From assembly GCA_001466705.2 (NCBI GenBank), contig LATX02000214.1, forward strand, positions 62,001-126,000: 64,000 nucleotides of DNA, given 5' to 3'. The notes below the pieces were generated by a model. It worked only from the letters and a program-made list of their open reading frames with translations. It did no database searches and was not told the DNA's origin. Of this stretch, positions 1-26,821 are shown piece after piece. Within the stretch, counting starts at the first letter, position 1; every line of letters begins with the position of its first letter. Both the position numbers and the translations under genes were made by a program. The stretch is from Moniliophthora roreri (Eukaryota > Basidiomycota > Agaricomycetes > Agaricales > Marasmiaceae).

Positions 1-155
1 CTGGCGCCTAGTTTCCTTCGTATGAAGTTGGTCCAACGAACGCCTTCTTACAGACTTTGTGCGACGGGCCCTGGCCTGCATGGACCGAGTTGACCGGGAT
101 GACCTGACAAGAACGGAAAGAGCCTTGGTCTCAAAAGTCATAGACTTGTCGGCAG
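1..155. repeat. Duplicated fragment of the 17.6-kb ORF
   Basis: This stretch is a near-identical copy, in the same orientation, of about 17616..17770, which lies inside the unassigned ORF read on the minus strand at 17168..17818. Only scattered substitutions separate the two. It still contains CpG dinucleotides, unlike the DNA that follows from about 230. It may extend left of the window. The adjoining part of the 17.7-kb locus (17765..17905) is found as a second, decayed copy at 3168..3312, so the two pieces could be one duplicated copy split by about 3 kb of inserted DNA. Confidence 0.8.
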
Positions 156-344
156 TGGGCCGGCGTGAACCGCCGACAGGAACGAGTTCGGTTTTTTTTT
201 TTTTTTCAATCATTTGCTAGCTGCGAATTTATTTCCATTATTGGGTGCAGCATGTATTAGTAGGTGCGACGTACTTTCTCACGGCTCATGTTCAATCAAG
301 CAACAGTGGATGTAGCCGTCTGATCAGAACCTCCACATTTTCTT

Positions 345-1985: not shown

Positions 1986-3083
1986 TCCCTTATCCTCTGT
2001 TCACCTCCATATTGCCTCAATATGGAATACAACCAGAACAATATTGTTTGTCACAACCATATAGTTAGTACTCATATATAGGAAAGGAGAGAATTTTGCA
2101 GTAGGGGAAGAGTGGGGCTGGGTTGTGGGAACTACTGTCTGAAGACTGGCTTACTACCAGTTGCCCTTGCAAAATCTGAAAGACAGTGGACAAGGATTTG
2201 TGGGGGTTCTGATCAGATGGCTATATATATTCCTCAATCAAGTCTCACCTTTCTGCTGCATATAGAGCAAAGCAGGCCTTATGATTTTGACAGCATGTGG
2301 CCAAATCCAATGATATTATGTTAAGGTCAGTGTTGAACATGTACTTGCCCCTCTGATGGGGAAGAGCTGCCATACCATCATAGTACCATACCTGGTTATG
2401 TATATCAACACTTCTGGATACAAAATGGTACTCACTGAAATAAATTATGCCTCTTAAATTATAATTTACTAATCTATGATTCATAGGAAGTTGGAATGAC
2501 ATGTTGACATATGGAGCTTAATTGGGCATATTAGGCCTTAAATCTATACCCAACAATGGTAAATGGGCCTCATACTTGTTTTGGGAACCAACAGGGCTGC
2601 CACATGCCCTACAGCCAAAAGGAAGAATGCATGTAAGAGTCTTCTCTAGTATGTTTTCTTATAAGACATGAAATAGAATTAACAACATTGATACTTTGGT
2701 CAATTAAGATTGAGCAAGGTACCCTGTTACTGGCAGATGGCAATCATAAAAAGCATTGTCTATTGAATATGACAACAAAAGGGATAAAATTCCCACAAGG
2801 CAAGATTATGATTATGATGTTATGAAATGAAGAAATTTTAAGCCAAGTGTGATAATGGAAAATTTTCCCATGAAACTGAATGTAATATGCATTTGCTACA
2901 GTCATCATTTTTTATTCTATTGATATTCTGTATCAAAGAGGACTCATTAAAAAAAAAGCCCAAGGAAAGTAACATTATCACAGAAGTGTATGTAGAGCAG
3001 TGAGTTAAAGTATTGCTATAAAAGAGGTGGAACATGGGTGAATTGTGCTACAAATGTATATCATAATGGATCACATTCATTTT

Positions 3084-3168
3084 CATGAGAGAAAATTCCA
3101 TGATGGCCAAATTCTCTCTCAGGTGAAAAAACAGATAAAGAATAAATCTGGATAAATCCAAACTTTGA
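3084..3168. repeat. CpG-decayed copy of 11698..11790
   Basis: The blocks reading GAGAAAATTCC and GGATAAATCC match 11698..11790. Where the 11.7-kb copy has CCGTG, TTCGGATAAATCCGAAC, this copy has CCATG, TCTGGATAAATCCAAAC. The differences fall mainly at CpG sites. It directly adjoins the decayed copy of 17765..17905. Confidence 0.65.
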
Positions 3169-3312
3169 CACTGGCAACCAGTGTGAGATAGAATTAGTAT
3201 GAGCACTGTCTGAGAGCTTGTGCACTGTGTTCTAGTACAGAGATGATGACATAAGTACTAGCAGTTAAGGATCTGGGCAGGGAGATGCTCTTATATTTTT
3301 TAACATATGTGG
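3168..3312. repeat. CpG-decayed copy of 17765..17905
   Basis: The segment aligns over its whole length with the region upstream of the ORF at 17.2-17.8 kb. Differences are dominated by CG to TG or CA: CACCGCGTCC becomes CACTGTGTTC, GAGACGATG becomes GAGATGATG, GGCGACC becomes GGCAACC, GACGTATG becomes AACATATG. Every CpG of the 17.8-kb copy in this stretch appears lost here. Confidence 0.85.
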
Positions 3313-4321
3313 GGTGAAAGAACAAGATATAGGTAATGTCTGGTGACAAATGTCACCTCACAGACAAAGTACAGTGAACCTTCCCATGGTCACATAATTA
3401 ACTATCAGCCACATACATTGCAAAGGACACTTTATAGAGGAATCCATATACACTGCTAGCCATGCATATTATTTTACATGTATGTACCAGAAGATGATGC
3501 CAGAGTGCACTTCCTGTATGTGAAATAGATGGTGGCCTAGACCTGGTCTATACATTAATTGCCATTTCTGTGTGGTATCTGTTGTAAGCTGTAATTGCCA
3601 GCACTGTATGCTGGATATACATGTGGCAGGCCCACTAGATATGTTATAGATTGTATCAGTACAGTCAATTCCTTCAAGTACAATGGATGTACTGTTGATA
3701 TATCTTCAATGGATTGATATTGTACTCATGTAACACAACCCTTATGTGTATGTTTCTGGTCTTGTTCATACTATAGATTGAGAACAGCACAGAATATAGA
3801 ACACTTGCAGCTTGTGGGACCTGGAATGTGCTGGGCAAGATAAAACAAACTGTATTGCAGGATATAGACAAGAAATAATAGACAGCCAGCAATACAATAA
3901 CAGGAATGGAACACAGTTATAATGATGATACTATACAGAACATGGCCAAAGTAAGAAAACAAGTACAATAGTGACAACTGCAGCAACTACAAAAGCAGAC
4001 TTGAATGTAATTAGTGATGAAAGCAGTAATAAAATAGGCCAATGGCAATCATGAGAAAGTATTATGTAAGATGCTTGTGGTGCCTGTGTTCAAGGAAACA
4101 CAGAGCAGGCTACTCCAGGATTCATGCTACACTCTGGAAGTGCATAGCATCTGTAATAGTCTTCTGCCAGTCAGGTATGCAAGATGCTGTGTTATCAGAG
4201 AAGATCTTGACCCAAGAATTGGGCTTATAAACCTTGGAGTTGTTCTGCAAGACAAGGATGAAGAACCTGGAGAAGTTATTGTCTTAGTACTCAGGGAATA
4301 AGCTTAAGGCATTAAAAAAAC

Positions 4322-4630
4322 TTATACTTCCAACTTCTTAGCAGTTCTGTACTGTTTCTTGCAATTAGTAGAGTTTGTGATGTGAGCCTTCTCAAGCTTC
4401 TTGAGGGCCTTCTTCTCTGCTTCTTCCTTGGTGGAGGTTAATTTAGAGTCAATGAAGTTGTAGAATTGAGTAGAATTGAACTCCTTTTGGAGCCATTCAA
4501 TCTCTTCCTTCTGTGCTCTCTCTAATCTCTCCTTAATGGTTTCTTCTTTGGCAGCAGCATTGTCCTCATTCACACTTCTGGTGAAGTTGAAAGCTAGTAT
4601 TGGGACTAGGGCCATTATTGGACATTCCAC
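4322..4630 (-). pseudogene. Lysine/glutamate-rich ORF of unknown origin in the repeat region
   Basis: A 102-codon open frame lies in the CpG-depleted block. It is rich in Lys and Glu (ERLERAQKEEIEWLQKEF), suggesting a coiled-coil, as in the structural or gag-like part of a transposon. I do not recognise a family, there is no flanking gene structure, and it may simply be a surviving fragment. Confidence 0.25.
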
Positions 4631-5007
4631 TAATGTGGTGCAAATAGATGAAATTACTTAACAAGAGGCAACACAACCTCACAAAGAGTTGAAACACCTC
4701 AGAACAAGTGTAGTTATGGGAACTACAGATACAATGGGACATATAATTGATATCTAGGGAATAGATAAGATTAAGAACAAATTATCAAAGGAGACAGGAA
4801 CAGGGACAGTATGTTCCAGCCTTGGAAGCTTTGAAACCTGGACATCTGCAGCTGTGTGGATGCTGAAAAAGAGAATGCAGAACAGATAGACTTATCCATC
4901 CATCCAGACCCATCTAGAAAAGAGAAAAATCAAATATCTAAGAGTTCAGAACACCTGGAAAACAGATACCTGTGTGGATATGGTTGGATACCCTAATGGC
5001 CAGACTC

Positions 5008-5380
5008 TGTGACACCTGAATATTCTCTTTTAGCATCTCAGTTACTCATTTATTATTTTCCTGAATTATTGGACATTATAAAAGGACAGCTAGATATTCA
5101 TATGTACCCAAGTAACTCTGCCCCCTCTGATTGTGAATACATGAAGAGTTTGTTTGGTGTATAACTTTGTGTGCCATTCCAGTTTTGCTTCCTCACTTCA
5201 GGCTCTAGAGATTGGTCCTGAGTGACTCCAGAGAGATAGAAATCTGATAACAAACTTGCATTGTAAGAGACAAAGAGTAACATTTTTAGTGCACTTGGCA
5301 CTTTTCTAAGAGATAACTTTACACCAAAAGTTCTGGTGGCTTTTGGAGTGTGGCCTGTGTGTGTATCAGGTTGTGACACA
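5008..5380. repeat. LTR-like direct repeat, copy 1
   Basis: The segment begins TGTGACACCTGA and ends TCAGGTTGTGACACA, so it has TG...CA ends. It is repeated in direct orientation at 5823..6233 with many transitions and small indels. I read the pair as decayed LTR or LTR-fragment copies. The spacing of about 440 bp is too short for an intact retrotransposon interior. Confidence 0.55.
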
Positions 5381-5572
5381 CTTAGAGTCTTAACAAAGGA
5401 ATTGGGCCTGCAATTAAGCTCTTTGTAGAAACTGGTCTAGGACCTTTTCCAGTACACTGTGTACTGTAGTTGTCTTAAAGAAGTCTTGAACTCCATAGGG
5501 TCAGACTATATTGGCTACCAAGTCTTTTGGTGGAACTGTAGCTCTTGTGTTTTGTGCTTTGTGCAACTATAT

Positions 5573-5602
5573 TCTTGTGTGTGTGTGTGTTTGTGTGTTT
5601 GA
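5573..5602. repeat. TG/GT microsatellite
   Basis: A short run of TG dinucleotides between the two LTR-like repeats. It is followed by a TATAAA-like sequence at about 5602, as in an LTR promoter. Confidence 0.8.
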
Positions 5603-5635
5603 ATATAAACCCTTTTAAAACCCATATATACTCCT

Positions 5636-5822
5636 CTGGAGGTGAACACTTTGAAGTAGATTGCTTTGATAAAAGAGAATCAACCCAGCTAAGAGTTTAG
5701 TTGATGTTCTAAGTATGGCAACTCTGATCACATTGATCCACACTTGCTTAAACAACCTCAGTTAGACTTTTGGAGGTTATCTTTTGGTAGTTTTCCAATA
5801 GTCTTATCTTAGACAAATTACC
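5636..5822. repeat. 190-bp repeat, copy 1 (possible LTR R-U5 end)
   Basis: Runs from GGAGGTGAACACT to GACAAATTACCA and recurs at 7645..7832. It sits after a TATAAA-like box and ends exactly where the second LTR-like repeat begins. The simplest reading is that it is the 3' part of one long LTR (about 5008..5826), whose 5' part is then repeated at 5823..6233. Confidence 0.5.
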
Positions 5823-6233
5823 ATAACACCTGAATATTCTCTCTTTTAGCATCTCAGTCACTAGTTTATTATTTTTCTGAATTATTGGACATTATTTATA
5901 TTTTCCTGCAGACATATTCCATGGACCATATATAAGGCCAGCTAGATATTCATACATACTCAAGTAACTCTGCCTTCTCCAATTGTAAATATATGAAGAG
6001 TTTGTTCGGTGTATAATTGTGTGTGCCATTCCAGTTTTGCTTCACCACTACAGGCCCTGGAGATTGGTCCTGAGTGACTCCAGAGAGATAGAGATCTGAT
6101 AATAAACTTGCATTATAAGAGATAAGAGTAACATCTTGAGTGCACTTGTGCACTTTTCTAAGAGACACTTTACATCAAGAAGGAGCCTTGGGCACTTGGA
6201 GTGTGGCCTGTGTGTGTATCAGGTTGTGACACA
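5823..6233. repeat. LTR-like direct repeat, copy 2
   Basis: Direct repeat of 5008..5380. It shares TAGCATCTCAGT, CAGCTAGATATTCATA, GGAGATTGGTCCTGAGTGACTC-type blocks and the TGTGACACA end. Both copies are CpG-poor. A 50-bp segment around 5890..5935 is present here and missing from copy 1. Confidence 0.6.
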
Positions 6234-6276
6234 TTCCTCTTTTCTAGCATCTGCACATCGGCAGAGGCCTAGAGGC

Positions 6277-6719
6277 TGTTAGAACTATGCAAGAAAGCAA
6301 GGTCGAGTACGGCCAAGCGGCAAGGGGAGTGCCGTATGAGAATCACCATACGAAAGAGATGGGTTCGCTGAGGCTATTGGCAACAGCACTACTGAACTAT
6401 GGAGCTCAGCTGAGATGAAGGGTCTCCGCACGAGCGAGATGGAAGGCAAGGTAGAGGAGAGAAGTGAAGAGCGTAGAACAACGTTAATTTTCCACTTGGG
6501 GTATCTCGGTAGAATACAGTGGTTTATATCTACTGGAAGAGAATACAACGTGGAGAACGTATGTAGTCCATGAGGACAATGACCAAGATGTCGCTACAAG
6601 AAAACGTGTTGTAAGATGTACAATGGTGGAGATTAATGGAACGTGTAGGTTATGATGGAGGAGATGCGTAAGCATGTCTCGTACAGGTCACGGCCGAGCC
6701 GAGTCGTATGAGCGTAACA
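6277..6719. mobile_element. Solo LTR with 5-bp target-site duplication
   Basis: A 443-bp segment with perfect terminal TGTTA...TAACA. It is flanked on both sides by the same pentamer, GAGGC (6272..6276 and 6720..6724). These are the marks of an LTR left by recombination between the two LTRs of a retrotransposon. It contains many CpGs while the DNA on both sides has almost none, so it inserted after most of the surrounding CpG decay. No reverse transcriptase or gag is adjacent. The superfamily cannot be decided from the LTR alone. Confidence 0.85.
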
Positions 6720-7644
6720 GAGGCCAAAGTTTCCAAGGTTGGAACATGCTGTTACTGTTCCTATCTCCTTTGATAATGCATGCTTGGCCTTAGTTAGGAC
6801 TTCTTATGCATTAGATATTCTTCATATGTCTCATTGTGTTGGTCTATTAAGTCACTCCAGTCCTACAAAAGTAGTCTTCTTGCTTCCAAGGTTACTTTAT
6901 GCTTAATTATGTTATTTCATATGTTTTCGCCACCTTTGAGCTCTTTATTAAGAGATTGTCTGCTTTGACATTGATCTGTATATTGACTTCAGAGGACAAT
7001 CATTCTTTGATTGTTCCTATTCTAAGCCATCTTTTTGTTTCCATGTCTCTTTTAAGTACCTTTGTACTATTTGACTGCATGTTGCACTTTGCAGGTATTA
7101 AAGAAGGTTAAAATAAAATTAAAATCCCATTGATAGCACTTCAAGAGCTTGGTTAACTAGCCAATGCATTTATTGTGCCCTAGTTAGGTTCTCTACAGGT
7201 TTCAGGAGTGATCTGTTTTGGATCTGATACATAGATAAGTCAGAAAGTACAACTTAGACACCTCTATATAGCATGTCATATAGCTCTTCATACTTTCCAA
7301 TGCACCATAGCTTCTCTAAGGCAATGACTAGCAGACTGGGCTCACTCTAGTCCTTAATACCCATTATCTTGTGTCATATTAAAGTGTTCCAATTCAAAAG
7401 TAATGTAAAAAATGAATGAAATTGGGGTCTTTTCTAAGTTTGCCATATTACCAAGTGTTATTGCCCACATTCATGAAATTTTGACTTGCTGAGGTTCTAT
7501 ATAGTACAATATATTACCAGGTAGTTGACCACCTTCTCAGATAGCAGAAGGTCTTGCAATATAGAACCTAGGTTGCCTATGGATGCTATTCAACTATTTG
7601 ACCTATATTCTGCTACATAGTGATTGTACAAGTTCCAGATGTTG

Positions 7645-7832
7645 GAGGTGAACACTACAAAGTAGAACACTTCAATAAGAGAGAATCAACCTAGCTAAGA
7701 GTGTTGTTGGCATTCTAAGTGCAGCAACTCTGATCACATCAACCCATACTTGCAACAACAACTTGAGTTAGACTTTTGGAGGTTATCTTTTGGTAGTTTT
7801 CCACTAGTCTTATCTTAGACAGATTACCAACA
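7645..7832. repeat. 190-bp repeat, copy 2
   Basis: Copy of 5636..5822. It ends in ACAGATTACCA, and the sequence after it becomes Ty3/gypsy pol-like. It is therefore probably an LTR end that was joined to, or inserted into, an older gypsy copy. Confidence 0.6.
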
Positions 7833-8000
7833 CTCTATCTTGACAACCAGATCACATAGAAGAAGACAACAATGATAATGAAGATGTCATTCTGTTACCT
7901 GACAAACTCTTCACCAAAGCAATTGATTTGGATCTTTAAGGCAAATTATGGAAGAGATTGGGTCTAGACAACTTTCACAGATCAGTCCTAGAGGTATTAC
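7833..8000 (+). pseudogene. Ty3/gypsy pol relic (RNase H to integrase linker)
   Basis: The plus strand reads L-S-stop-Q-P-D-H, then DNNDNEDVILLPDKLFTKAI. This corresponds to the LSRRPDH...NEDVVLLP...LF..AIDLDLQ stretch that I recall from basidiomycete gypsy polyproteins, between RNase H and the integrase zinc finger. The stop and the Gln sit where two Arg (CGA) codons would be expected, that is CGA to TGA and CGA to CAA, consistent with CpG decay. A further stop follows within 20 codons. The family assignment is from memory and not searched. Confidence 0.5.
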
Positions 8001-10824
8001 TCAACCAGAGTGTGCTGCCAATCAAATCCAGCTGGTGTATCAAGTCTTTAGTTAAAGTGACTGATAATTATCTGAACAACTATTGCAGAAGTGTGCAATA
8101 ACTTTTAAAGTAACTTTTGCTAAAGCAGATACACTTTTGTTAATGTTACTCTGACCACTGGTCTGCTTTTTTTGGCTTTTTCAATTGGAAAAGAGTTTAC
8201 CACACCCTCTGGAAGGTATTCTGGTGCACTTTGCTGTTTCCAAATAGGGAAGAGATTCCCATAGCATGCTGCACCCATGATACCTATATTGGGAAGTGTA
8301 CTGAGGGCTATTGGGCCATGCTGGGGGGTTATAAAAACTGGGGAATTGATTGAATATACTCTATTATACTATAGGATGCTTCCCCTGCAGTTTGGGAGTG
8401 TCAGGATGCTAAAAAAGCAGTGTAATTAGAAGTTAAATAGCCTATATATGCAGGATGGAGTATTAATGCTTGGGCTGCAGGAAAGATATTGACATAGGGT
8501 AACTTCTAGCATGTAGATATAATTAATACAATGTCTGGGACACCAAATAGTAATATATTTCATTGGGTATTAGTATAGATATGAGCAAAATACAGGAAAA
8601 AACTGAAATAGAGTGATAAATGGTACTGTATGGGATCTATTGTTGCTGGACCCTATCTCTCATAGCTGGGGCACCCTCTATATGTCTAAATGTTGGAGCC
8701 AGCAGTTCAGGAGCCTAGTATTTTTTCCAGAATTACTACAGCCAAATTCACTTTTTTTTAGGTTTTGGTAGTACTACATCACAGGGAATAATCTGGAAGG
8801 GCCAAGGCATGGTCAGAACTCCTTTATTAATGTACTGACAAGGAATATATACTTACCCATCATGGTACCCTCTTCCTTTCCTGTCCATCCACAGTTCCCT
8901 TCATCTTCCATAGGTTTCCTCATTGATAATGAATTTCCCAACCCCAATTCCTCAGCTTCATCACTGCTGCCACTCATTATCACAGTGAGCTCACCTACTC
9001 CAACTATCAATCCACCTTGCCCATCAAATCTGAACCTAAACACAAGCCCCTCAAACTTGAACTCCCCCCCATCACTGTTCTTACAACTCCAGAGCCAACC
9101 TCAAATGCCAGCATTCAACCACATGGTCAAGGTGTCTTCCAAGAAAGATGAGGGAGACAGTGAGGACAACCATTCCAGGGAGGTGCCAAGTGGCAAAGAC
9201 TGTCAGAGAAGAAACTTGAGACCAGAGACTTCAGTTCCTCATCTGGATCCAGTATCATTATCTCAGTGCTCTGTGTGCTGATTGGATGGCCACAGTCCCT
9301 AGAACTGTCCAGAGTACTGTCACAAGAAATGTCTCTGGTATGCACCTGGATATCTCAGTCAATATTACCCCCACCATTGAAGGTCTAACTGAGTTGTGGC
9401 ATGAGAGCATTTTAAATGTCCTTACTCTTTTGAGGAGGGTGGAGATCATGACAATGAGTTGTATGAAGATGGGGAATAGTAAGCTCATGGGGCCAGAGGC
9501 TGTGCTGGGACACCCAATCTTCATACCTCCAACCTTCAGGATTATGGCTGGAATCTAGATCTTAAAAGAGGGGTAATATTACAGACTTTCTATATTATCA
9601 TTTACATCATCACTTGTACTACCATCCATGCTTCTCTTTCTTTTGGACTTATACACCTTCCTAGCTCCCTTTTTCTTTTATGACATCATAAACACATAGC
9701 TACACATATTTACACATAAGTGGACACATCAGACCATGTAGATACATGTAGCTACTATTGTATTATAAATAGTGTGCTCACCAGGCTCTAAGCTCCTCAG
9801 CTTGACCTGGTCAATCTTACCTTGAAAACACTCTGTCTGAACTACTTGACCTCTGAACACTCCTGATCTTGAACTTGTGTAAATGGAACTTAAGCAGCCA
9901 TCACTTAGGTTTGACTTGTCACTGTATTTGGCACAAGTGACATAACAAACTTTGTCTGAAGGAATATTTTTCCAGTAGCAAAGAAGGTCAAGGTACCAGC
10001 TGAGATAATGTGCTTCAGCCAGCAGGCAAGCAATACACCATTTCCAAATGCAGAACTGTTGAAAATAGCAGTAATGTGCAGCCACAATGTTATGAACATG
10101 GACTTGCATAGTAGGATGTTGAGACTTGCACACTTTGTGATTGGCCTTTGGAGTGTTGACAAACAACCACTCATTGAAGCTATGTCATGTATTCAGTTAC
10201 TGGTCAACTTCATATGTGGAGGGGTGGAATGTAATCACAGGATAAAGCTTCCTGTTCACATGGATGTCCTCAAATTATGGCTGAGACTACTCTGGCTGTT
10301 CGGATCTCTCAGACTTTTGGACTATGTAAGGACTTTTCTCAGACTCTTTTAGCTAGCATGTCATTCTTTGCAATCTCACATGACCTCTGTATGGCAGGGA
10401 CTTCATAACCACCTTCCTTTCTTCCTTTCCTCAGTTGTGTTATCACCCAACTGAGGTATGCTTCTATCTATTATCATTCCCTAGCTTGTATTGACTCTGT
10501 CTTACCTAGGTGCCTTTTCACTTCACTGGCTTCTTGTGTTGATAGATCCTCAAGTGGTGGATGTAGAAGGGCATGAATGAAAGCAATACTTTCAGTACAC
10601 TGACCTTGGTGGAAAGACTGCAGTAGAAATGCATCAACTACTGAGGGGAATGGTTGTGCACAATGATGCTAGAGGGTACTTGTTGTGGAAGTGCATGAAG
10701 TTACAGGCATAATTAAAGAAGTTGGATTTATGTACCAATTATGTCTAGTGTTTCCTCATCACATAAATGAACATTTATTTGCTCACAAAGCATTTTGTTA
10801 TAATTGTTGTACATACATCGTCTG

Positions 10825-11624
10825 CATCAGCAAAATGGACACCTAAATATAATAAATTATAATGTATTTTGCTGATTTTAGTCCATTGTAATAGATTAAA
10901 ATCAAGCAATGCTATTACAATACATTAAAATGCATTAAAATGAGACTGGTGTTATTATAATCCATTAAAATACAATAAAATGGGATGGTATTATTATAGT
11001 ACATTAAAATGCAATAAAATGGGATGGTATTATTATAGTGTATTAAAATGCAATAAAATGAGACAGAGTTATTATAATGTAGTAAAATAGATTGTAACAG
11101 AGGCAATCAAAACAGTGCATTTTTATGCCTTCCAGAGGACAGGGAGAGGACTCTATAAAGTGAAGGGAAGCTTTTGGTTGGGGATTTGATCAATAGAAAC
11201 AGCAAGGGGTGGAGATAGGTCTTTTGAGTAAGGGGATATATTGCACTATGTGTGGTGGTAAGTATATGGCACTGTGGTACAGTGGTCTTGAGCACCCCGT
11301 GGCTGCCAAGGATCATGACTAATCCACCTTGAGGTCGAGGGTTCGACTTACGGGGGTTGCAACAAATAAATATTATTTCTTTTTGTCCCCGACCCCCAGG
11401 TGGGGCCGATGCATTATAATGGCTGAAATACATTATAATAGCCAAAATACATTATAATAGCCAGAATACATTATAACCATTTTGCTTCATTTTAACTCAT
11501 TAAAATAAAGGAACAACAATTATATTACATTAAAATACACCATAATGATTATAATGTATTTTGGCCATTATAACATATTTCACTCATTTTATTCCAATAT
11601 ATTTAGGTGTCCATTTCGCTGATG
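10825..11624. mobile_element. 800-bp terminal-inverted-repeat (MITE-like) element
   Basis: The left end CATCAGCAAAATGGACACCTAAATATA (10825..10851) is the reverse complement of the right end (11598..11624), with one mismatch that is itself CpG to CpA. The interior is AT-rich, with repeated blocks of the type ATTATAATNCATTAAAATG. Two 39-bp units around 10981..11058 are nearly identical. There is no transposase frame, so it would be non-autonomous. No convincing target-site duplication was found. Confidence 0.7.
11268..11405 (+). mobile_element. tRNA-derived SINE-like insertion
   Basis: TGGTACAGTGG (11275..11285) fits a pol III A box, and GGTTCGA (11340..11346) fits a B box about 55 bp downstream, at tRNA-like spacing. 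The acceptor and T stems do not pair, so it is not a working tRNA gene. It keeps several CpGs, unlike the AT-rich TIR element around it, implying a younger insertion nested in that element. Confidence 0.5.
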
Positions 11625-11639
11625 TGATGCTAGCCATGC

Positions 11640-12178
11640 ACAGGACAAAGTGCTGTGTCACACGGTAAGAGGCTGCTACCATAAGGAGTAATCCGCTCAT
11701 GGGAGAAAATTCCGTGATGGCAAAGGCTCGAAAAATTTGGCCCAGTGCAAGAATAAAAGAACGAATTCGGATAAATCCGAACTCGTAAACGGGACCCGGA
11801 CGGGAGCGTTACACTATTCTCGACTAAATCCTTTAAAATTCACATGTTTCACACAGGATTCGCTGCAAAGACAAATGTGCATCGAGTATGTAGATCTACA
11901 TAGAAGAGCATTCAATGCCATCGGACACAACATAAACTGTACATGATATGCATATCTGTAAATCATGGAATGTGACTAGGGCTGCCCCAGGGCCCAAGGG
12001 TATGTATCGTATCCATGTATACACAAACATCTCACCCAGTCCGACCTTGGAGTCTAGATTAGACTTGACTAGAAAACGATCGATCAGTAATAAGAAACAG
12101 ATCAAGAAACACAGGGAAGTTCCCTGAACTCCTATCAGTGTCAAGGCGAACCACTCACTTGCAGAACTGGACACGAAC
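11640..12178. other. Intergenic, no gene recognised
   Basis: CpG content returns to normal here. The stretch contains the intact copy (11698..11790) of the repeat decayed at 3084..3168, including the near-palindrome TTCGGATAAATCCGAA. I see no coding region. Confidence 0.6.
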
Positions 12179-15050: not shown

Positions 15051-17002
15051 ATGTCCTTCTTTCGTCGAAACCCTGCCCTTCCTCCCGGTCCTTCTCCGCT
15101 TCCTCTGCTTGGGGTAAGCAAACGTTTCATGTCTACCTCTCCCGACGCTGAACTGTCTTCAGAATGTCTTCGACATGCCCTCTGGTCAGGAGTGGCTCAC
15201 ATTTGCCGAGTGGGGTAGGAAATATGGTACGTCGTCATTGTGCTCAAATAAGACCTTCCATTATAATGGCTTACAGGAGGGATATGCTCCGTGACGCTTA
15301 TGGGTCAGCCAATGATCATCATCAACTCGGCAGATATTATGGCCGAGCTCGACAAGAAGAGCGCCATCTATTCAGATCGTCCCAGGCTTGAAATGGGAGG
15401 CGAGCTCGTCGGTTACTCGAAGACCCTAGTGCTGGTTCCCTACGGAGATCGGTTTAGAAACTACCGTAGATACATATCTCGCTTGATTGGCACCCCGAAG
15501 GCGATGTCAAAGTTCTATCCTATGGAAGAAACCGAGATGCATCGTTTCTTGCAGAGAGTCGCGCATAATCCTGACGACCTCAGTCAACACCTTCGAAAGT
15601 GAGTGTCGCTTTGGGTCTACTGTGATTGGATGCTCACAGACGTCTCACACGCTAGGACTTCTGGCGCGATCATCATGAAGCTCGCGTACGGTATTGACGT
15701 CTTGGAAAAGGACGATCCATTCGTCGAACTTATTGAACATGCCAACGATAACTTCAATATAGCCACTGCACCAGGTCACAATCCATTTTAGCTTTCCTCA
15801 GTGCTGTCCACTTAATTTGGGTCTTTCGACTTAGGCGCTTTCTTGGTCGACGTTTTCCCGTCCTTGAAACATATACCCCCAGGTTTCCCGGGTGGCGGTT
15901 TCCATGAACTGGCCCACAAGTGGGCGAAGGCGTTCAATGATATGGTTGAAGTACCATACGCGCACACGAAGCATCTGATGGTGAGTTGTGTACTGCGTGC
16001 GGTGAGGTCCTTGAGCTCATTTACATCAGTCCTTGGGGAAAGCGCCCGTATCCTTCGTCACCAGTTCACTTGAAAACGAAGACAAGCTAAGTGAAGAAGA
16101 GATTTTCGAGATCAAGCACACCGCAGCCTCACTGTATGGGGCTGGCGCAGATACTACTGTCTCTGCGCAATATGCCTTCTTCCTCGCCATGGTCCGCCAC
16201 CCTGGTAGGCCTTCATCCAGCGGTCAGAAGAACATTACCTGACACGCCACTTTTTTTTTCAGAGGTCCAGCGGAAAGCTCAAGCCGAGATTGACGCAGTC
16301 GTGGGGAATGATAGGCTACCCTCTTTCAGCGATAAGGAACATTTACCATATGTCAATGCCGTGCTCAGCGAGGCTCTCCGATGGAACAGTGTTGCGCCTA
16401 CTGGTAGGGACCTTCATTCTTCATCCGCCTTCTTTATTTTGACCATCGAAACGATAGGTGTTCCCCATCGGGCGACAGAGGACGGCATGATTGGGGGTTA
16501 CTTTATACCGAAAGGATCTATCATTATCACCAACCTTTGGTTTGTCCTGTAGAGCCCGCATTCCCCGTTACCTTCTCATGAACACCCTTCAGGTATATGT
16601 TGAATGACCCGGCGGTCTACCCTGACCCCTTCAAGTTTGACCCGGAGCGATTCATCGCTACACCCGAAAAGCCAGCACAAAGGGATCCTCGACACGCCTG
16701 CTTCGGATACGCCCGTCGCATCTGTGCTGGGTTGCATCTCGCCGAAGCATCACTCTGGCTGTGCATTGTCATGTCACTTGCAGTGTTCGACATCAGCCCT
16801 GCCATAGGAGAAGACGGGAAACCTATCATTCCAGAGCACGAGAATACGAACGGAACGATTAGGTCAGTAAAGCCGCAATAATCTTCAATTCGAACGCGCT
16901 CACCGGACATTATATCTCAGTCATCCAAAACCATTCAAGTGCACAATCAAACCTCGTTCGGAGAAAGCCCTTTCTCTTATCGACAGCGACGTATCGCAAT
17001 AG
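15051..17002 (+). CDS. Cytochrome P450 monooxygenase
   Basis: Ten exons join in frame to 487 residues: 15051..15113, 15163..15226, 15277..15598, 15656..15774, 15835..15980, 16030..16204, 16263..16403, 16458..16539, 16593..16862, 16921..17002. Family marks are the proline-rich start (LPPGPSPLPLLG), the I-helix GAGADTT, the K-helix EALR, the DPERF meander motif and the heme loop CFGYARRICAG with its Cys ligand. The layout resembles CYP5144-type enzymes of basidiomycetes, which hydroxylate small lipophilic compounds. Two oddities are seen. The protein begins almost at the proline hinge with no membrane anchor, and the heme loop has Ala where FxxGxRxCxG has the conserved Gly. The substrate is unknown. 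Confidence 0.92.
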
Positions 17003-17167
17003 ACTTACCTTCCTTCCAAGTTTCATCCCATTCGTTAATTACTCTATTTGGATCGCCTGATCTCTCCCTTTACTGCGGCTATTAGTACCGAAACATATAA
17101 ACTTTTATTGGGGTGCTGGGTCTACATTCACGCACTAGGTAATTCAATAACCCTTCCTTCGCACGCG
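17003..17167. other. Short intergenic stretch after the P450 gene
   Basis: No features are seen other than the P450 3' flank. Confidence 0.5.
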
Positions 17168-17764
17168 TCATACCGTGGTATGCAAAGCTGGAGCATTTTG
17201 TCGACGGGGTATGGGAAAAGGGTGATCTCTGCCCCTCCTGGGTGTCGGCCTGGTCACCGTACGCGCCGCCGGTGAATTGTCTTCAAGGCGTGGATCAATG
17301 GGCGACGGTGTGAAGTCGAGGTCTAGATTATCTCCGTTCGAGATTTCGACAGCAACAACCGTGATCGGTGGCTGTGGACTTTCTGGTAAACTTTCAATGC
17401 TCCGTTGTCGAGTCCAACTCGGGGGTTGTTTCGTCGCCGGGAGACTCGTACTGCTAAAGTTTGAAAGCCTCCCAAACCTTCCGTCTCCGAATCGCTGACT
17501 GGCTGAGCGAACCAGCCTTGGAAGAAAAGGCATCTCCGTGCTCCCAACGGAAGGCTTCGACCGAGGTAAAGTGTCTTCCAATAAATTCCTGAAAGTTGTT
17601 CGTCTCTCGACTCGCGACTGGCGCCTAGTTTCCTTCGTATGAAGTTGGTCCAAGGAATGTCTTCTTACAGACTTTGTGCGACGGGCCCTGGCCTGCATGG
17701 ACCGAGTTGACCGGGATCGCTTGACAAGAACGGACGGAGCCTTGGTCTCGAAGGTCATAGACAT
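17168..17764 (-). CDS. Basic, disordered hypothetical protein, probably 3' exon
   Basis: A long open frame is rich in Arg, Ser and Pro (VKRSRSTRSMQARARR), with no recognised domain. The first in-frame ATG is at 17764. The frame stays open upstream to about 17820, where an acceptor-like CTGTACTAG occurs. An upstream exon is therefore likely; a donor-like GCA/GTGAGT lies near 17933. Copies of its 5' part and of its upstream region lie at 1..155 and 3168..3312, so the locus belongs to a repeated sequence and could be a degenerating family member. I cannot assign a function. Confidence 0.4.
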   Translation of the reverse strand: MSMTFETKAPSVLVKRSRSTRSMQARARRTKSVRRHSLDQLHTKETRRQSRVERRTTFRNLLEDTLPRSKPSVGSTEMPFLPRLVRSASQRFGDGRFGRLSNFSSTSLPATKQPPSWTRQRSIESLPESPQPPITVVAVEISNGDNLDLDFTPSPIDPRLEDNSPAARTVTRPTPRRGRDHPFPIPRRQNAPALHTTV

Positions 17765-21277: not shown

Positions 21278-23257
21278 ATGGTCTATCCCGGTTAGTATCT
21301 CTGGTATATTGGACCTTTTCGAGGTTCTGATATACTCTCGTTTAGCTAGCAAACATGCTCTCAAAGTTTTTGAACAACTGATCAAGCTCGTACCAGCCAA
21401 TGAGCGGAGCAAAGTAAGCAATTACGTCTAGCGAGATTCAGAATAGGAATTTAACAGTCTTGAATAAAGCCCCATGTTCTTTTCCTAGCAGGAGAGGTGA
21501 CGCCCTTCAGGAATGACACCGACCGCGAAATCGTATTTCGTCAGGAATCGAACTTCTTCTACATGACTGGGTGCACTGTGCCGTCGTCCTATCTTTTGGC
21601 AGTCTATCAAGAAGGAACATCCTTCTCGCAGATTCCTTCGCTGGAGTTGTTCATCCCAAAGATCGAGCTCGCAGATCTTATGTGGTCCGTTCCACCACCT
21701 ACTCTTGAGGCAGCGGCAGAGACCCACGACGTAACACATGTTGATTACTCTTCTTCCGTCTCTGAAGCGATCAAGACTACGATTAAGGCCTTTCCTGACG
21801 CGTTGTTTCACACATTACCCCGAGGTTCACCTCTCTTTCCCGTCATTTCAGCTGAGTTTACTCAGCTCATCCTTTCACCCGAGCACGAGGGTTTGGCTGT
21901 CAGTGATTTATACCTGCTTCCAGCCCTTCACCAGGCACGATTGATCAAGGATGACGATGAACTCGCTTTGATCAGACATGCTAATGAAATCAGCTCACGA
22001 GCACACGAAACTGTGATGAGAGTACTAGGAAAGGCTGTCAAGGGTGAAATCGAACGAGGAAAGGGTGCTGGTGTCGACCGTCCTCTTCTTCCAGGAGAAT
22101 GGCTGATTGAGAAGGAAGCGGAGGCAGAGGCAATCTTCGTTGCTTCATGTAGACGGGAGGGGTTAGTCATTATCATTAACTACTATGTCGACCTTGCTGA
22201 CATGCGGTTATTAGGGCCGTACATCAAGCATATCTACCTATTGTAGCAGCCGCTAATCGTGCTTCAATCTTGCATTACTGCTGTAATGACAGGTAAGCAT
22301 ACCTACCTATTTACAGCAGCTATTAATTTTGCATTCGACAGGGAATTTGGATGGGGTCCAATCAACCCTCATGACCACAAGAACCGAAACGAATTCGCTC
22401 ATGGCGGTGCCAAGAAGCTCCTTCCCCAAGTTCTACTCATCGATGCCGGTTGCGAATGGAATTGCTACGCATCCGACATTACCCGAACTATGCCTGTTGG
22501 AAACGGTGGCAAATTCACTCCAGAAGCTCGTGCTATCTACGAGCTTGTCCTGGAGATGCAACGCGTGAGTCAGGTCTCGGCACTTCCAACATGTCGTTGA
22601 TATGTTTCCCCAATAGCTATCTATGGATATTCTTCGACCGGGCCTTCACTGGGATGCAGTCCAGCTTCTTTGCCATCGAACTCTCGTCAAGGGGTTTCAA
22701 CGCTTGGGCATCTTCAAGTCTCCTTCGAATGGTGCCATTTCATCTACATCCCCAGCAGGCTCCGAGGACTACAATAGTGAGCATGACGAAGAGGCTATTC
22801 TCGCGTCAGGCATCAGTTCGGCGTTTTTCCCGCATGGTCTCGGACATAGTTTGGGCATGGATGTGCACGATGTGCCTAGCGCAAGCAAACCAGCAGTCAA
22901 TGATACGATTGGGAAAGGAGTGAAGCTCGGTCATGAAAGCTTCTACACCTATCTTAGACTTCGGTTGCCCCTGGAAAAGGGCATGGTGGTGGTCAGTTCT
23001 CTGTGTTCCTGATTCGATTGATGTGCTCAAGTTCGTTCGGTCAGACGGTTGAACCCGGAATCTACTTTTCGCCTCATTTAATTGCCCCGATTCGCGACTC
23101 CAAACACATCAATCAAGAGGTTTTGAAGCAATACGAAAGTGTTGGTGGAGTTAGGATCGAAGACGTGGTCGTGATCACTGAAGACGGATATGAGAACCTC
23201 ACGACAGTAAAGAGTGATGTGGACTGGGTGGAGGGTGTATGTTCTGGGGAATTGTGA
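21278..23257 (+). CDS. Xaa-Pro dipeptidase/aminopeptidase (peptidase M24B)
   Basis: Seven exons give 553 residues: 21278..21290, 21346..21413, 21470..22161, 22215..22292, 22342..22564, 22617..22991, 23045..23257. The start ATG is in a 13-nt first exon, and the frame then reads [14 protein letters not shown]. The N-terminal creatinase-like domain contains [20 protein letters not shown]. The pita-bread catalytic domain shows [20 protein letters not shown], then the metal ligands: the Asp pair in [16 protein letters not shown], His in [13 protein letters not shown], Glu in TVEPGIYF and Glu in [12 protein letters not shown]. These are the five ligands of M24 di-metal peptidases. The enzyme removes N-terminal residues preceding proline, or cleaves Xaa-Pro dipeptides; no targeting signal is visible. 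Confidence 0.93.
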
Positions 23258-23480
23258 TTCATATTATGAAAGTCACGGGAGAATGAAGGAAGCATGATAA
23301 CAAGGTATGTTTTCTCTCACGTTGAGACTGCTGCCTTTTTGCCAATAATCTTTCTGCAGTAAAGTTGTATGTGTACCGGTAAAAATACAAATTAACACCA
23401 TCTCCATGATCCTCCCTTCGTACCGCTAAATATACAGAACGTGAAGCTAGTGCCCAGAAAGGTATGATATAGCGCCGCGC
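23258..23480. other. Short convergent intergenic region
   Basis: Lies between the stop codons of the peptidase gene and the G-domain gene. Poly(A) signals for both strands are expected here, but none is diagnostic. Confidence 0.5.
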
Positions 23481-26400
23481 TCAGCGCTGAAGCTAAGGCC
23501 GATGATCAGCTCAAGTCAACAATCCGACCGCTACACTCACTTCAAAATGGTTATCTATCAACAACTTCTGATACTTCACTGCCAAGGCTCTCAACTTGTC
23601 GCGATAAAGATGCCCGTCATTACCCAAAACCGTCGTTGCCATATCCGTATACAACTCCCCCGCTATCACACGGAACAGATCACGAGAAGCTCGCGAATTA
23701 TCGTACTGAAAGATGACATTGCGAACGAGGTCGATGTTATGCGGTGTGCTCCCCCCATTCCAAAATAAGCATTCGGCAATAACCAGAATATCTGGGAGGT
23801 TGAGGATATTTAGTAAGCCGCTTATCCTTACCGTAGCCCTCACCGATAAAGAGTACAAGTAGTTGGTGCTTTGTCGTTGCTGATGGATTCTTCTAAATAT
23901 CGTTCAACGCCCTGTTTCTTTGCGACCACAGGCGTGCGTGCGTACCCAGGAAAACGCAGCCTGGACGATGATACGGACAACTTCCTGATCCTGGGAGGTC
24001 TGTTGAAAGTTATTTACAGTTCATGAAGGGAAGGTAAGACTCACAAACTAGACGAAGGCAATGACGGAGAACCTGGTGAGGACGAGATATAAGAAGTCAC
24101 GCAGATGGCTTACAGTCTACACATATATAGGCTTCAATGTACGTCTGACGCGTAGATGGCGGGCAACGCTTACCGGCTATACAGATCCCAAGCACCTTCT
24201 AAGTTTCTCAACGATTCGTTCAAATTGATTCACTTACAGCCTGCCATAGTCTCTTTACTAGAAGCGTCACACTGAAATCGCTGAACCACGTACCCACTAT
24301 TACAGAAGATAACCAAGTTTTGACGTCTGAGTTGGTGCAAGTAAGGGATAGAGGGACTCACGTCCTGTTTGGCGCAAATGGTGTGTTAGTATCATTTTCC
24401 CGGAGGTACGAAGACCACATACATCCTGGATGCAATGAATCAGTGATCATCGTTAAGGAACAAATCGAGCACGTACGTCCTATCGTTGAACACCATCATG
24501 TACTTGGAACTTAGCCTTTCGACCATAACGGAGTAATATACGCACCCACTGACAATGGCGGTCGATTAGCATTGACGGAAAGGTGATATCAAGCAGACTC
24601 TTACTTTCTGTCAATTTGGCGAGGGCCACGTTAGTGAGACGGATAACGTTTGGTTCAGTGTACTAGAACTAACCCACTACGGCGGATATTGAGCGTTAAC
24701 CGGACATCGCAATGGATTGGCCTTACGTGCTAACAATCGTAATCGAGACAGAGTGTTTAGCGACGATGAATCCAAGTATTTTACACGGAACGTACCCACT
24801 AAAATCGATGAATCAACACACGGCCCCGGAAAAAAAGGTGTAACTTACTTCCTAATTGAATCGATGCCCGAACCGCTTTTAATCGAGTCCTGAACAAGCC
24901 AAGATGGCGCACGCACCCACTGTGATAGCGGATGAGATGTCGTGATACGGTCAATACAAAGCATCTTACATTCTGTAAAAATAGGTCAATAATTGTCAAC
25001 GGAGATATGCAAAGAAACGACCGAACATCCTAATATGACATGCCACGTGGCAGGTATTGCGGTGAGTTGAGATTTATGTCGCTAATGCAACGGATTCACC
25101 TCCTAGTAAGGAGACTCAGTACAGAGAAGGCTCCGCAAGCCACGAAAACCTCACCATCTAGAATTGACGAGAGTTCCTTGAGGTATCTCATAACTGAAGC
25201 TGAGCACTCACATTCTAGACAAATGGTTCAGCGAACTGCTCTCGAACTTGGGAAAATACCTACGAAAAACTATGTCGGCGTTCAGAATTCGTCAATAAAC
25301 AATTTATGCATCAGTCTTTTGAGTCTAGACGTACTTCCTAAGAGAGAGGATTAGATCATAATTTCTAGCAAAGAAATGATTATGATACACACTTTCTGAA
25401 GTTCCAAATTTAGGGAGTGACGTCGACTTCAGCTTATATCATTATCGACAACTGCCACTTACCCAGTGGGGAAATAGAGAAAGCAGCAGAATCGACCATT
25501 CATACACTTTATTGTTTTCCAGTCGTGCATGTTCGTGTTTCTCGTTCGCAAGTGACATGGCGCTAGTAGTCATGATGAGACAAAAGAACTGAGATGACAC
25601 CAGGTGAACATACTAGACCAAGGCGATTCCCATCGAGACTTCCACGCTATTTCGTTGGACCATGGCGAAAAGGCGCGAAATGACCTCTGTCTGGATGGTT
25701 CTGTGAGTGGCTGAAGTCAAGTCGGCGCACGTTGTTTCCGGTTTGTTCATATCTGGGGTAGATGAGTGGTATGACAACTGAAGTTATAGTGCAACTTGCT
25801 CTGCAAGTAAGCGCAATCTGCAGGCGGGTATCTCATCTGTCGCCTCCGTTCTGAAAAGAGCACCTCAAAGTCCCGAAAGGCTTTCTCTGGCGCACGTCTC
25901 CGTGCTTCCCTCAGGCTCATACCGCCGTCGCGAAGTTGACTAAACGCCTTGGTGATACGATCCTCAAACTTGGTGAATACAGCAATGACAGGGACTGAAG
26001 AACAGATTACCACCGAGCCCTGTAGAAAGCAACTAAGTCACTCACCGTCTCCGGTACCCTGCTCAAAAAAAGCCATCTCTTCGTGACACAGAGGCCGACT
26101 CGTGTCGGTAGGCAAACAATACCTTAGATGGATGTTAAAGGAATGGCTAACCCAACACTTCGAGGGCTCACCATATGACATGCAACTTCTCGCTCAATGG
26201 TACCCTTTGGATTCTCCGCTTTATGAAATCCTTCAACGTCTCCAGCTCGTCTCGCGACCCAGCTTCCATCCCGCGCGAGTCGTGAAACACAAAGCGCTCA
26301 TTACTATGAACAGTCGTGTGAGTCATCATACGACCCATTTGAGTGAGTGAAAAGAGGACCTTGGATAAGTTATTTCCCAATCAATGCGACTTCTACCACG

Positions 26401-26821
26401 CTAGAAAGAACAATTGAGATCCATGAACAAGTAAATCAGTAGTAGCAGCACTCACTTCAACGGATGGCTGCAGTATGGAACCGGGATCTACCTGAAGAAC
26501 CAAGGTCGTCAATTGGGATTAATATTATAAGATCCTCAGTGTCTAACCCACTTGATTTCCATTTGAGTCATGAACGACAAACTGTCCATCCGAGCTCTGA
26601 GTCATTTTCTGCAGAATTGTGGTCTTTCCTGCATTCCTTCTGCCCATTACCAGAACCCGAAATCGCGGAACGTGCTTCTTTACAACATCTTCGGGGTCTC
26701 TACCGTGCGATATGGTTATTCTGGAATGAGGCGTTTGTACGGTGCCGTCCGATAGTCGACGAGAATGCATAGAGTGCATAGGTATGAATGAGTCTTGAGG
26801 GTCAAAAAATTGCGGTCGCAT
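23481..26821 (-). CDS. Fungal G-domain (P-loop GTPase-like) protein with 35 exons
   Basis: All exons join in one frame to 475 residues. The first ATG is at 26821. Large exons are 26552..26821, 26456..26491, 26360..26400, 26172..26303, 26046..26122, 25800..25994, 25614..25752, 25463..25562. Then come 23 micro-exons and 23946..23999, 23844..23892, 23541..23791, 23481..23492. Walker A is GRRNAGKTT (about residue 60). The switch-like FVFHDSRGMEAG replaces DxxG, and the base-recognition block is PVIAVFTKFE. Later blocks (MNKPETTC, LFAMVQRN, LLVLFIDILVIAECLFW) follow the order of a large basidiomycete family of unknown function. The hydrophobic stretch IDILVIAECLF may be a membrane segment. Intron 6 is GC-AG. 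The last intron is optional: without it the protein ends ten codons later. Confidence 0.88.
24045..25395 (-). other. Array of 23 consecutive 3-6-nt micro-exons
   Basis: Reading the minus strand, the micro-exons are 25393-95, 25335-37, 25264-69 (6 nt), 25212-14, 25155-57, 25100-02, 25027-29, 24970-72, 24917-19 and 24849-51. They continue 24796-98, 24727-29, 24674-76, 24605-07, 24546-48, 24477-79, 24423-25, 24362-64, 24294-96, 24238-40, 24174-76, 24114-16 and 24045-47. Each is preceded by AG and followed by GT with a good donor (GTAAGT, GTACGT, GTGAGT, GTGCGT types). The introns between are 49-70 nt within the array and 45 and 67 nt at its edges, all in phase 0. The codons begin AAA, GAA, TTT-TTC, AAT, ATG, GAG, GAT, AAT. 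Five later ones are TGG. The flanking 100-nt and 54-nt exons are in the same frame. Alternative: one 1463-nt intron, with the internal sites acting as recursive splice points. Confidence 0.8.
25753..25799 (-). other. GC-AG intron of the G-domain gene
   Basis: The frame requires splicing from ...TACTTGCAGA to ATATGAACAAACC. No GT donor gives the right phase. The sequence GCAAGT at the junction is the classic GC-type donor, and CCCCAG is the acceptor. The 47-nt length equals that of the neighbouring introns. Confidence 0.75.

What the first reader, a model, noticed from the sequence alone, without database searches (positions are those of the whole stretch)
24045..25395. Twenty-three consecutive micro-exons of 3-6 nt, one per codon, in a G-domain gene
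On the minus strand the pattern AG-NNN-GT recurs 23 times (one unit is 6 nt) with 49-70 nt between units. Every unit is a multiple of 3 and every intron is phase 0. Both flanking exons (25463..25562 and 23946..23999) are in the same frame, and the whole 35-exon model is open over 476 codons with conserved family blocks on both sides. Donor and acceptor sites are good in nearly every case, and some introns carry branch-like CTAAT/CTGAC motifs. Single 3-nt exons are known in eukaryotes, but I know of no run of this kind. Exon definition cannot work here, so splicing would have to proceed purely by intron definition, or the sites act as recursive splice points inside one 1.46-kb intron.
Basis: partly seen in the sequence, partly recalled or inferred. 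Interest (0 to 1): 0.97.

Follow-up and report, generated by a model that had tools for sequence, protein, structure and literature searches.

The report
Gene spliced one codon at a time
In the cacao fungus Moniliophthora roreri, one gene holds 24 consecutive codons as 23 separate three- or six-base units between splice signals, which are likely stitched together one by one, and a sister gene holds the same kind of unit in near-identical tandem copies that would each add one amino acid.

Summary
On the minus strand, 25395..24045, 22 triplets and one hexamer lie between good splice signals, with introns of 45-70 nt, all phase 0. Under a strict donor rule no run of even two 3-nt exons occurs in 170 kb of the same genome or in the rest of the window. 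Read in order the units spell KEFFNMEDNWEWHWKWDDDWAPTF. A relative's 372-aa ORF on a 1,435-nt contig (P0002, most simply a spliced transcript) has the homologous peptide, unbroken, at the same place: 10/24 identical; 0 of 2,000,000 permutations reach its score. The genome is Moniliophthora roreri. A dispersed copy (L009) keeps the whole array. Two distant sister genes (L013, L012) carry arrays at the same place, including a 69-bp tandem repeat of 3-nt exon plus 66-nt intron. In L013 the repeat introns differ by 5.5% but the codons by 57%, which points to growth by tandem duplication, one residue per unit. Gene models of relatives often fail at this point. No M. roreri cDNA could be examined. 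New variant of a known kind.

The parts
26552..26821 (-). exon 1 (ATG, P-loop GRRNAGKTT)
   Evidence: open frame and homology
26456..26491 (-). exon 2
26360..26400 (-). exon 3
26172..26303 (-). exon 4 (FVFHDSRGMEAGS block)
26046..26122 (-). exon 5
25800..25994 (-). exon 6 (IAVFTKFE block); followed by a likely GC-AG intron 25799-25753
25614..25752 (-). exon 7
25463..25562 (-). exon 8, ends LLLSLFPHW at phase 0, upstream flank of the array
25393..25395 (-). microexon AAA (K)
25335..25337 (-). microexon GAA (E)
25264..25269 (-). microexon TTTTTC (FF)
   Evidence: FF also in P0002
25212..25214 (-). microexon AAT (N)
25155..25157 (-). microexon ATG (M)
   Evidence: M in P0002
25100..25102 (-). microexon GAG (E)
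   Evidence: E in P0002
25027..25029 (-). microexon GAT (D)
24970..24972 (-). microexon AAT (N)
24917..24919 (-). microexon TGG (W)
24849..24851 (-). microexon GAA (E)
   Evidence: E in P0002
24796..24798 (-). microexon TGG (W)
24727..24729 (-). microexon CAC (H)
   Evidence: H in P0002
24674..24676 (-). microexon TGG (W)
   Evidence: W in P0002
24605..24607 (-). microexon AAA (K)
24546..24548 (-). microexon TGG (W)
   Evidence: W in P0002
24477..24479 (-). microexon GAC (D)
   Evidence: unit intact in L010
24423..24425 (-). microexon GAT (D)
   Evidence: unit intact in L010
24362..24364 (-). microexon GAC (D)
   Evidence: unit intact in L010
24294..24296 (-). microexon TGG (W)
   Evidence: W in P0002; CGG in L009
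24238..24240 (-). microexon GCT (A)
24174..24176 (-). microexon CCG (P)
   Evidence: P in P0002
24114..24116 (-). microexon ACT (T)
   Evidence: ATT in L009
24045..24047 (-). microexon TTT (F)
23946..23999 (-). exon after the array (TSQDQEVVRIIVQAAFSW)
23844..23892 (-). exon (KNPSATTKHQLLVLFI)
23541..23791 (-). exon (ILVIAECLFWNGG...), open at its donor; terminal exon not modelled

Best explanation
The sequence shows 23 units of 3 or 6 bases, each between an acceptor-like YAG and a donor-like GT and all phase 0, that are predicted to be spliced one by one, likely by intron definition, into a 24-residue tryptophan- and acid-rich loop of a G-domain protein of Moniliophthora roreri. How it would work (inferred): every 45-70 nt intron is recognised across itself. 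The donor signal lies in the intron (+3 R in 22 of 24, +5 G in 23 of 24) and not in the exon (only 1 of 23 units ends in AG), so a codon can serve as an exon. Because a 3-nt exon would not hold two spliceosomes at once, neighbouring introns would have to be removed in turn. How it arose (inferred, best seen in sister genes L013 and L012): tandem duplication of a phase-0 unit of 3-nt exon plus intron, each copy adding one residue without disturbing the frame, after which the codons diverge. The window array would be an old, decayed array of this kind.
For: (1) P0002, a 372-aa ORF on a 1,435-nt contig, has NNFFHMERHYEVHWDWIEGWTPFL after FPYW where the window has KEFFNMEDNWEWHWKWDDDWAPTF after FPHW, both followed by DQE(V/I)V: 10 of 24 identical, BLOSUM62 score 69; of 2,000,000 permutations none reached 69 and 4 reached 10 identities. 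(2) L009, a copy 94-95% alike, keeps the 23 units; 0 changes in the 92 AG/GT bases beside them and 0 in 42 ordinary splice-site bases, against 34 in 1295 array-intron bases; no stop in 453 aligned codons. (3) Sister genes L013 and L012 have AATTAT/AATCAT, GAT, TAT, GGAGAGACA, GAG and further triplets as microexons at the homologous place. L013's NYDYGETEE matches SYDYGKTEE of P0180, the best of the transcript-like relatives, on a 1,554-nt contig (7 of 9; 63 of 1,000,000 permutations reach 7), and less closely P0139, P0126, P0137 and P0153; P0158 does not show it. (4) L013 has a 69-bp tandem repeat of exon plus 66-nt intron, 5.5 copies against 2.5 in L012; the 5 full introns differ by 3.6 of 66 bases on average, the codons by 1.7 of 3. 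Minimum changes are 4 of 15 exon cells against 9 of 330 intron cells, Fisher p = 0.0013. A genome search lists the repeat only at C66 and C132 (that search skips very common words). (5) In 28 of 36 genome-derived relatives with tails of 2-60 residues the model reads V-S, V-R, V-G or V-C (a GTNNGT donor translated) within 12 residues of the block where the array starts; 9.6 in shuffles, 0 of 20,000 as high. (6) Retaining any one array intron except GAT>AAT (54 nt, in frame, no stop) would shift the frame or meet a stop.
Against: No cDNA or protein from M. roreri was seen, and the deposited model of the C132 sister gene skips the microexons (P0121). Between window and L009 the microexons changed in 3 of 72 bases (W>R, T>I, one synonymous), no less than the array introns (2.6%). 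P0002 has two residues more than the window between the loop and DQE. The window's own introns show no residual similarity to each other. Their alternating lengths (65, 50, 66, 50, 66, 56, 66, 51 from TGG at 24919) give lag-1 autocorrelation -0.56, p = 0.003, but lag 2 only p = 0.06 and near-equal lengths two apart are not in excess (p = 0.26), so a duplication origin of this array is inferred. Strict CTRAY is not enriched.
Confidence: 0.86

Rival explanations
1. A relic: the microexons were spliced in the ancestor but the window gene (and L009) is no longer expressed or no longer spliced at all sites.
For: 22 nonsynonymous against 17 synonymous codon changes in 453 codons between window and L009, only mild constraint, and no lower rate in microexons than in introns; none of the 120 listed hits is a near-identical transcript; L010, a third copy, has lost about 1 kb of the region and its gene end.
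Against: Frame open over 472 codons, YAG and GT intact at all 24 array introns of the window, all 134 tested splice-site bases unchanged in L009 and no stop there.
Confidence: 0.08
2. One 1.46-kb intron: the AG-NNN-GT units are decoys or leftover signals and the mRNA joins FPHW to TSQDQE.
For: The deposited Marasmius crinis-equi model P0001 joins FPHW straight to NVADHECIRVI.
Against: The unit codons in order match P0002 residue by residue; the nine other introns of the gene model are 47-60 nt; models of relatives fail at this point in a way that looks like missed short exons.
Confidence: 0.04
3. Recursive (ratchet) splicing: the sites serve stepwise removal of one intron and leave nothing in the mRNA.
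For: Regular spacing of acceptor/donor pairs.
Against: Recursive sites join AG directly to GT (recalled); here every unit keeps 3 or 6 bases in frame, which match a homologous protein.
Confidence: 0.02
4. Intron insertion instead of unit duplication: a once continuous exon was cut between every codon by copies of one intron (introner-like). This rivals the origin, not the splicing.
For: In L013 introns are nearly alike and codons differ, as insertion into a pre-existing exon would give.
Against: The 69-bp unit is listed only in the two tandem arrays at C66 and C132; L012 and L013 differ by whole units, so the protein changes length; the window introns show no common sequence.
Confidence: 0.15

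Closest known systems
nank (NACHT-ANK) NLR genes of the truffle Tuber melanosporum, Iotti et al. 2012 (not held; known to me through passages of PMC9815663, PMC3689799, PMC4986451, PMC10197012)
   Same: Fungal P-loop NTPase family; dozens of 3-bp mini-exons reported; alternative splicing said to diversify the C-terminal recognition domain.
   Different: Ascomycete NACHT-ankyrin receptors; the window gene is an Agaricomycete G-domain protein, and no NACHT or ANK was found in the four relatives scanned. Order, spacing and tandem-unit origin of the truffle mini-exons could not be compared.
Micro-exon genes (MEGs) of schistosomes and tapeworms (passages of PMC7653826)
   Same: Runs of in-frame microexons; exon skipping said to give proteins differing by a single amino acid.
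   Different: Animal genes; there exons up to 70 nt count as micro; here 22 of 23 consecutive exons are exactly 3 nt, in a G-domain gene.
Aphid bicycle and megacycle genes (passages of PMC9168663)
   Same: Many microexons in one gene (more than 100 in megacycle); putative fast-evolving family.
   Different: Insect effectors whose internal exons are almost all phase 2; here phase 0 and one codon each.
Single ultra-short exons: 1-nt exon of Fusarium CYP621A (PMC12940212, abstract and introduction), 1-nt exons of plant APC11 and VPS55 (PMC8831610, passages), Trichoderma Xlr2 microexon (PMC11121469, passages)
   Same: Show that very short exons are spliced, also in fungi.
   Different: Isolated exons, not a run of 23.

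Membership tests
Truffle nank-type genes with codon-sized exons | many 3-bp exons in one gene | tested here: met
   22 exons of 3 nt plus one of 6 nt
Truffle nank-type genes with codon-sized exons | NACHT domain with ankyrin repeats | tested here: not met
   Pfam scan of relatives P0002, P0126, P0121 finds MMR_HSR1 (in P0121 also Arf below cut-off), P0001 none; the window protein itself was not scanned
Truffle nank-type genes with codon-sized exons | alternative splicing of the codon-sized exons | not testable with these tools
   no RNA data held
Micro-exon gene (definition in PMC7653826) | at least seven exons, at least half micro (<70 nt, multiple of 3), at least four consecutive | tested here: met
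   34 exons in the model, 25 such exons, 24 in a row (23 units plus the 54-nt exon)
Micro-exon gene (flatworm MEG class) | flatworm gene of that class | tested here: not met
   fungal G-domain gene with Agaricomycete relatives
MMR_HSR1-like G-domain family (PF01926) | profile match above the curated cut-off | tested here: inconclusive
   relatives P0002 25.3, P0126 25.9, P0121 26.8 bits (cut-off 21.9), P0001 no match. The six-frame PF01926 search of the genome does not list the window gene, which is cut by introns; its P-loop GRRNAGKTT is read directly
Recursive splice sites | AG and GT adjacent, nothing left in the mRNA (recalled) | tested here: not met
   3 or 6 bases between AG and GT in 23 of 23 units, matching P0002
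Introner-generated introns | dispersed near-identical intron copies (recalled) | tested here: not met
   69-bp unit of L013 listed only at C66 and C132; window introns not alike

The most novel reading that the evidence does not exclude
A codon-by-codon diversity machine: in a large Agaricomycete G-domain family one loop is written as an array of one-codon exon-intron units that grows and shrinks by tandem duplication, keeps its introns alike while selection drives the codons apart, and, since every unit is phase 0, can be skipped in any combination (2^23, about 8.4 million in-frame versions of the window gene), giving each cell or strain a different loop.
Probability: 0.3. Interest if true: 0.96.

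Novelty: new variant of a known kind. Interest (0 to 1): 0.83.

Why it matters
If the run is spliced as predicted, the spliceosome of a basidiomycete can join 22 exons of single-codon size in one gene, a strong case for pure intron definition and a test for models of spliceosome crowding. The sister gene L013 offers something that the passages on truffle genes that I could read do not mention: a visible way to make such arrays, by duplicating an exon-intron unit that adds exactly one residue per copy, with the codon more variable than the intron around it. It also suggests that annotation of this family is wrong in many mushrooms at the same spot: of 44 genome-derived relatives with the block before the array, 31 end within 30 residues after it.

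Tried and rejected
Residual similarity among the 24 array introns of the window: best z 3.9 of 276 pairs, mean 0.35, and 0.02 among the introns after TGG; taken as none. A further microexon AAG at 24198: left out for a 19-nt intron. L013's repeat as a mobile introner: not favoured. L011 (C88), another G-domain relative: no run of four or more units of 3-12 nt. A second haplotype as explanation for L009: of a 19.9-kb query only 4.1 kb matches on C93 at that place, so it is a dispersed copy. A region search with P0002 residues 275-372 found only P0002 itself. An earlier count of relatives (47 carriers) missed seven models seen; with a wider pattern (54 of 240) replaces it. A first codon count between window and L009 (17 synonymous, 38 nonsynonymous) took in an unrelated first 57 bases, on the aligned part, gives 17 and 22 and replaces it, and I lowered the relic rival from 0.10 to 0.08 for that. 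The 42-nt reading VQYEVGATIRRQFE in L013 was set aside for a 12-nt exon because L012 does not share the longer frame. Strict branch-site enrichment: not found. The structure prediction of P0002 (33 sequences, mean pLDDT 77.7) puts residues 294-307, the first part of the loop (294-317), below 50; it says no more than that the loop is poorly predicted, perhaps flexible. No fold search was run. Paper searches behind the novelty claim: (open-licence PMC papers only). Iotti et al. 2012 and Martin et al. 2010 are not held, so how far the truffle arrays resemble this one is not known to me.

Full report
What is there. On the minus strand of the window, between exon 25562-25463 (ending LLLSLFPHW) and exon 23999-23946 (TSQDQEVVRIIVQAAFSW), 23 units of 3 or 6 nt stand between YAG and GT, with introns of 45-70 nt, all phase 0. 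Together they encode KEFFNMEDNWEWHWKWDDDWAPTF. The rest of the gene model follows conserved blocks of a G-domain family and needs one GC-AG intron (25799-25753). The run is far outside chance: longest strict run 10, against at most 2 in 1000 Markov sequences, and no strict run of two 3-nt units in 170 kb of the same genome or in the rest of the window; weaker rules give runs of two or three there.

Where it comes from. The window is part of contig C113 of a 59.4-Mb assembly. Its contig C132 has 588,431 bases, exactly the contig length given for the M. roreri protein WG66_001719 (P0121). By eye, the L010 reading frame matches the M. roreri kinase-like protein P0004, and L009's first exons match A0A0W0G752 (P0101) letter for letter. 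The organism is therefore Moniliophthora roreri.

Are the units coding? The strongest test is an independent protein. P0002 is a 372-aa ORF on a 1,435-nt contig, spanning places where the window gene has introns, so it is most simply a spliced transcript of a relative (inference). At the place of the array it has NNFFHMERHYEVHWDWIEGWTPFL. The 24 residues align without a gap to the window's units, 10 identical, score 69; 0 of 2,000,000 permutations reach the score and 4 reach ten identities. The genome-derived protein P0001 skips the region, and P0003, P0008, P0010, P0013, P0014, P0015, P0016 and P0026 leave the alignment right after the same tryptophan (read by eye). Over both searches, 54 of the 240 relatives listed carry the block before the array. 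Of 44 genome-derived ones, 31 end within 30 residues after it; of 10 contig-derived (jgi, lgn) ones, 4 do and 6 run on for more than 60. Of the 36 genome-derived ones with tails of 2-60 residues, 28 show V-S, V-R, V-G or V-C in the first 12 residues, as if a donor had been translated, against 9.6 in shuffles and 4.1 (maximum 11 of 2000 draws) in other stretches of the same proteins. These relatives are not independent of each other, and such a failure shows a hard exon boundary, not by itself a run of microexons.

Copies and sister genes. L009 on C93 keeps the whole array (95% over 3,978 nt; about 4.1 kb in all), with 3 changes in 72 microexon bases, 34 in 1295 array-intron bases, and 0 in 134 splice-site bases (92 beside the microexons, 42 at ordinary exons; about 3.6 expected at the intron rate, so only mild evidence); 17 synonymous and 22 nonsynonymous codon changes, no stop. 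L010, on the same contig, is 78% alike. It lacks the stretch that corresponds to 25612-24582 (one exon and 14 microexons), and nothing beyond 24317 was matched, but it keeps the GAC, GAT and GAC units with their splice signals, while the acceptor before its TGG unit is changed. L013 (C66) and L012 (C132), 39% identical to the window gene over about 60 residues of the G domain, have their own array between WFCHVY and LLICAEHSFW, the homologous place: AATTAT (AATCAT in L012), GAT, TAT, GGAGAGACA, GAG, then GAA CAA GAT GTT TAT CAA in L013 and AAG GAT CAA in L012. L013's NYDYGETEE lines up with SYDYGKTEE in P0180 (7 of 9; 63 of 1,000,000 permutations; P0180 is the best of the set) and more loosely with P0139, P0126, P0137 and P0153, all jgi contigs of about 0.9-1.6 kb; P0158 does not show it. 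L011 has no such run.

How such arrays grow. In L013 the last units are a 69-bp tandem repeat, 3-nt exon plus 66-nt intron (5.5 copies, 91%); L012 has 2.5 copies (94%). In L013 the five complete introns differ by 5.5%, the codons by 57%; all three exon columns vary against 9 of 66 intron columns (Fisher 0.004), and minimum changes are 4 of 15 against 9 of 330 (p = 0.0013). These are few events, and the test was chosen after seeing them. The genome search lists the unit only in these two arrays, so it does not look like a mobile introner. The plain reading is duplication of the whole unit, one residue per copy, with the codons then changing faster than the introns, as diversifying selection would make them. 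Intron insertion into an older exon is not excluded. The window array shows no sequence trace of duplication but has four TGG units followed by 65-66 nt introns (a fifth by 53 nt), with 50-56 nt introns between (lag-1 autocorrelation -0.56, p = 0.003; lag 2 p = 0.06; near-equal lengths two apart p = 0.26).

How it would be spliced. Array introns are about as long as the nine others of the gene model (means 58 and 53 nt). Donor strength lies in the intron; only 8 of 23 units end in G and 1 in AG. CTNA motifs occur in 18 of 24 introns against 11.2 in shuffles; strict CTRAY in 6, not enriched. Intron definition with removal of neighbours in turn is inferred. Whether all units are always included is unknown; P0002 suggests inclusion as the default.

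Compared with the known. Truffle NACHT-ANK receptors are reported to have dozens of 3-bp mini-exons, alternatively spliced (passages in PMC9815663; PMC3689799; PMC4986451; PMC10197012; the original paper is not held). Flatworm MEGs and aphid bicycle genes also have many microexons. So the kind is known. New here, as far as the searches named in Tried and rejected reach, are the gene family, the fungal phylum, the protein-level confirmation of an almost pure 3-nt run, and the tandem exon-intron unit. The probability that the window's units are spliced into mRNA I put at about 0.9, the duplication origin at about 0.7, and regulated skipping as a diversity device at about 0.3.

Noticed in passing
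L013 minus 2596-2251; L012 minus 2445-2307: The 66-nt repeat intron of L013 is nearly open in the frame of its exon (VSVSLAALEAGSADKAL, then a stop, then KCVQ); whether this means anything is unclear.
   Followed up: partly
P0126, P0180, P0219 (relatives, not window): Just after the block matching the L013 microexons, relatives have length-variable low-complexity stretches (DDDDLLLLL, GGLGGGRLGG, MMLILMMVMMLLLLL), as one-codon duplications would leave.
   Followed up: no
L010 (C93:568500-574500, minus strand): A third copy is joined to a kinase-like reading frame (M. roreri P0004) and lacks about 1 kb of the array region; the acceptor before its TGG unit is changed.
   Followed up: partly
25799-25753: Likely GC-AG intron with the donor GCAAGT, needed to keep the frame; same signals in L010 and the same protein junction in P0004.
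   Followed up: yes
22612-26766: The 4.1-kb stretch copied to C93 includes part of the neighbouring plus-strand gene, which by eye looks like an aminopeptidase.
   Followed up: no
about 16018-17762: Copies 93-95% alike lie at C113:59230-60897 and 60899-62145, just left of the window; the second reaches 145 bases into it.
   Followed up: no
63007-63330: Another G-domain ORF (PF01926 match at C113:125007-125330); no microexon run of four or more in the window outside the array.
   Followed up: no
49410-50093 and 51189-51905: Two similar plus-strand ORFs in tandem, by eye sulfotransferase-like.
   Followed up: no
1-12000: GC 0.37-0.41 against 0.45-0.52 in the rest of the window, with 39-bp and 19-bp tandem repeats.
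   Followed up: no
L011 minus, about 3000 and 2065 onward: By eye a stretch of about 0.93 kb is repeated in tandem with an N at the join, possibly an assembly fault.
   Followed up: no
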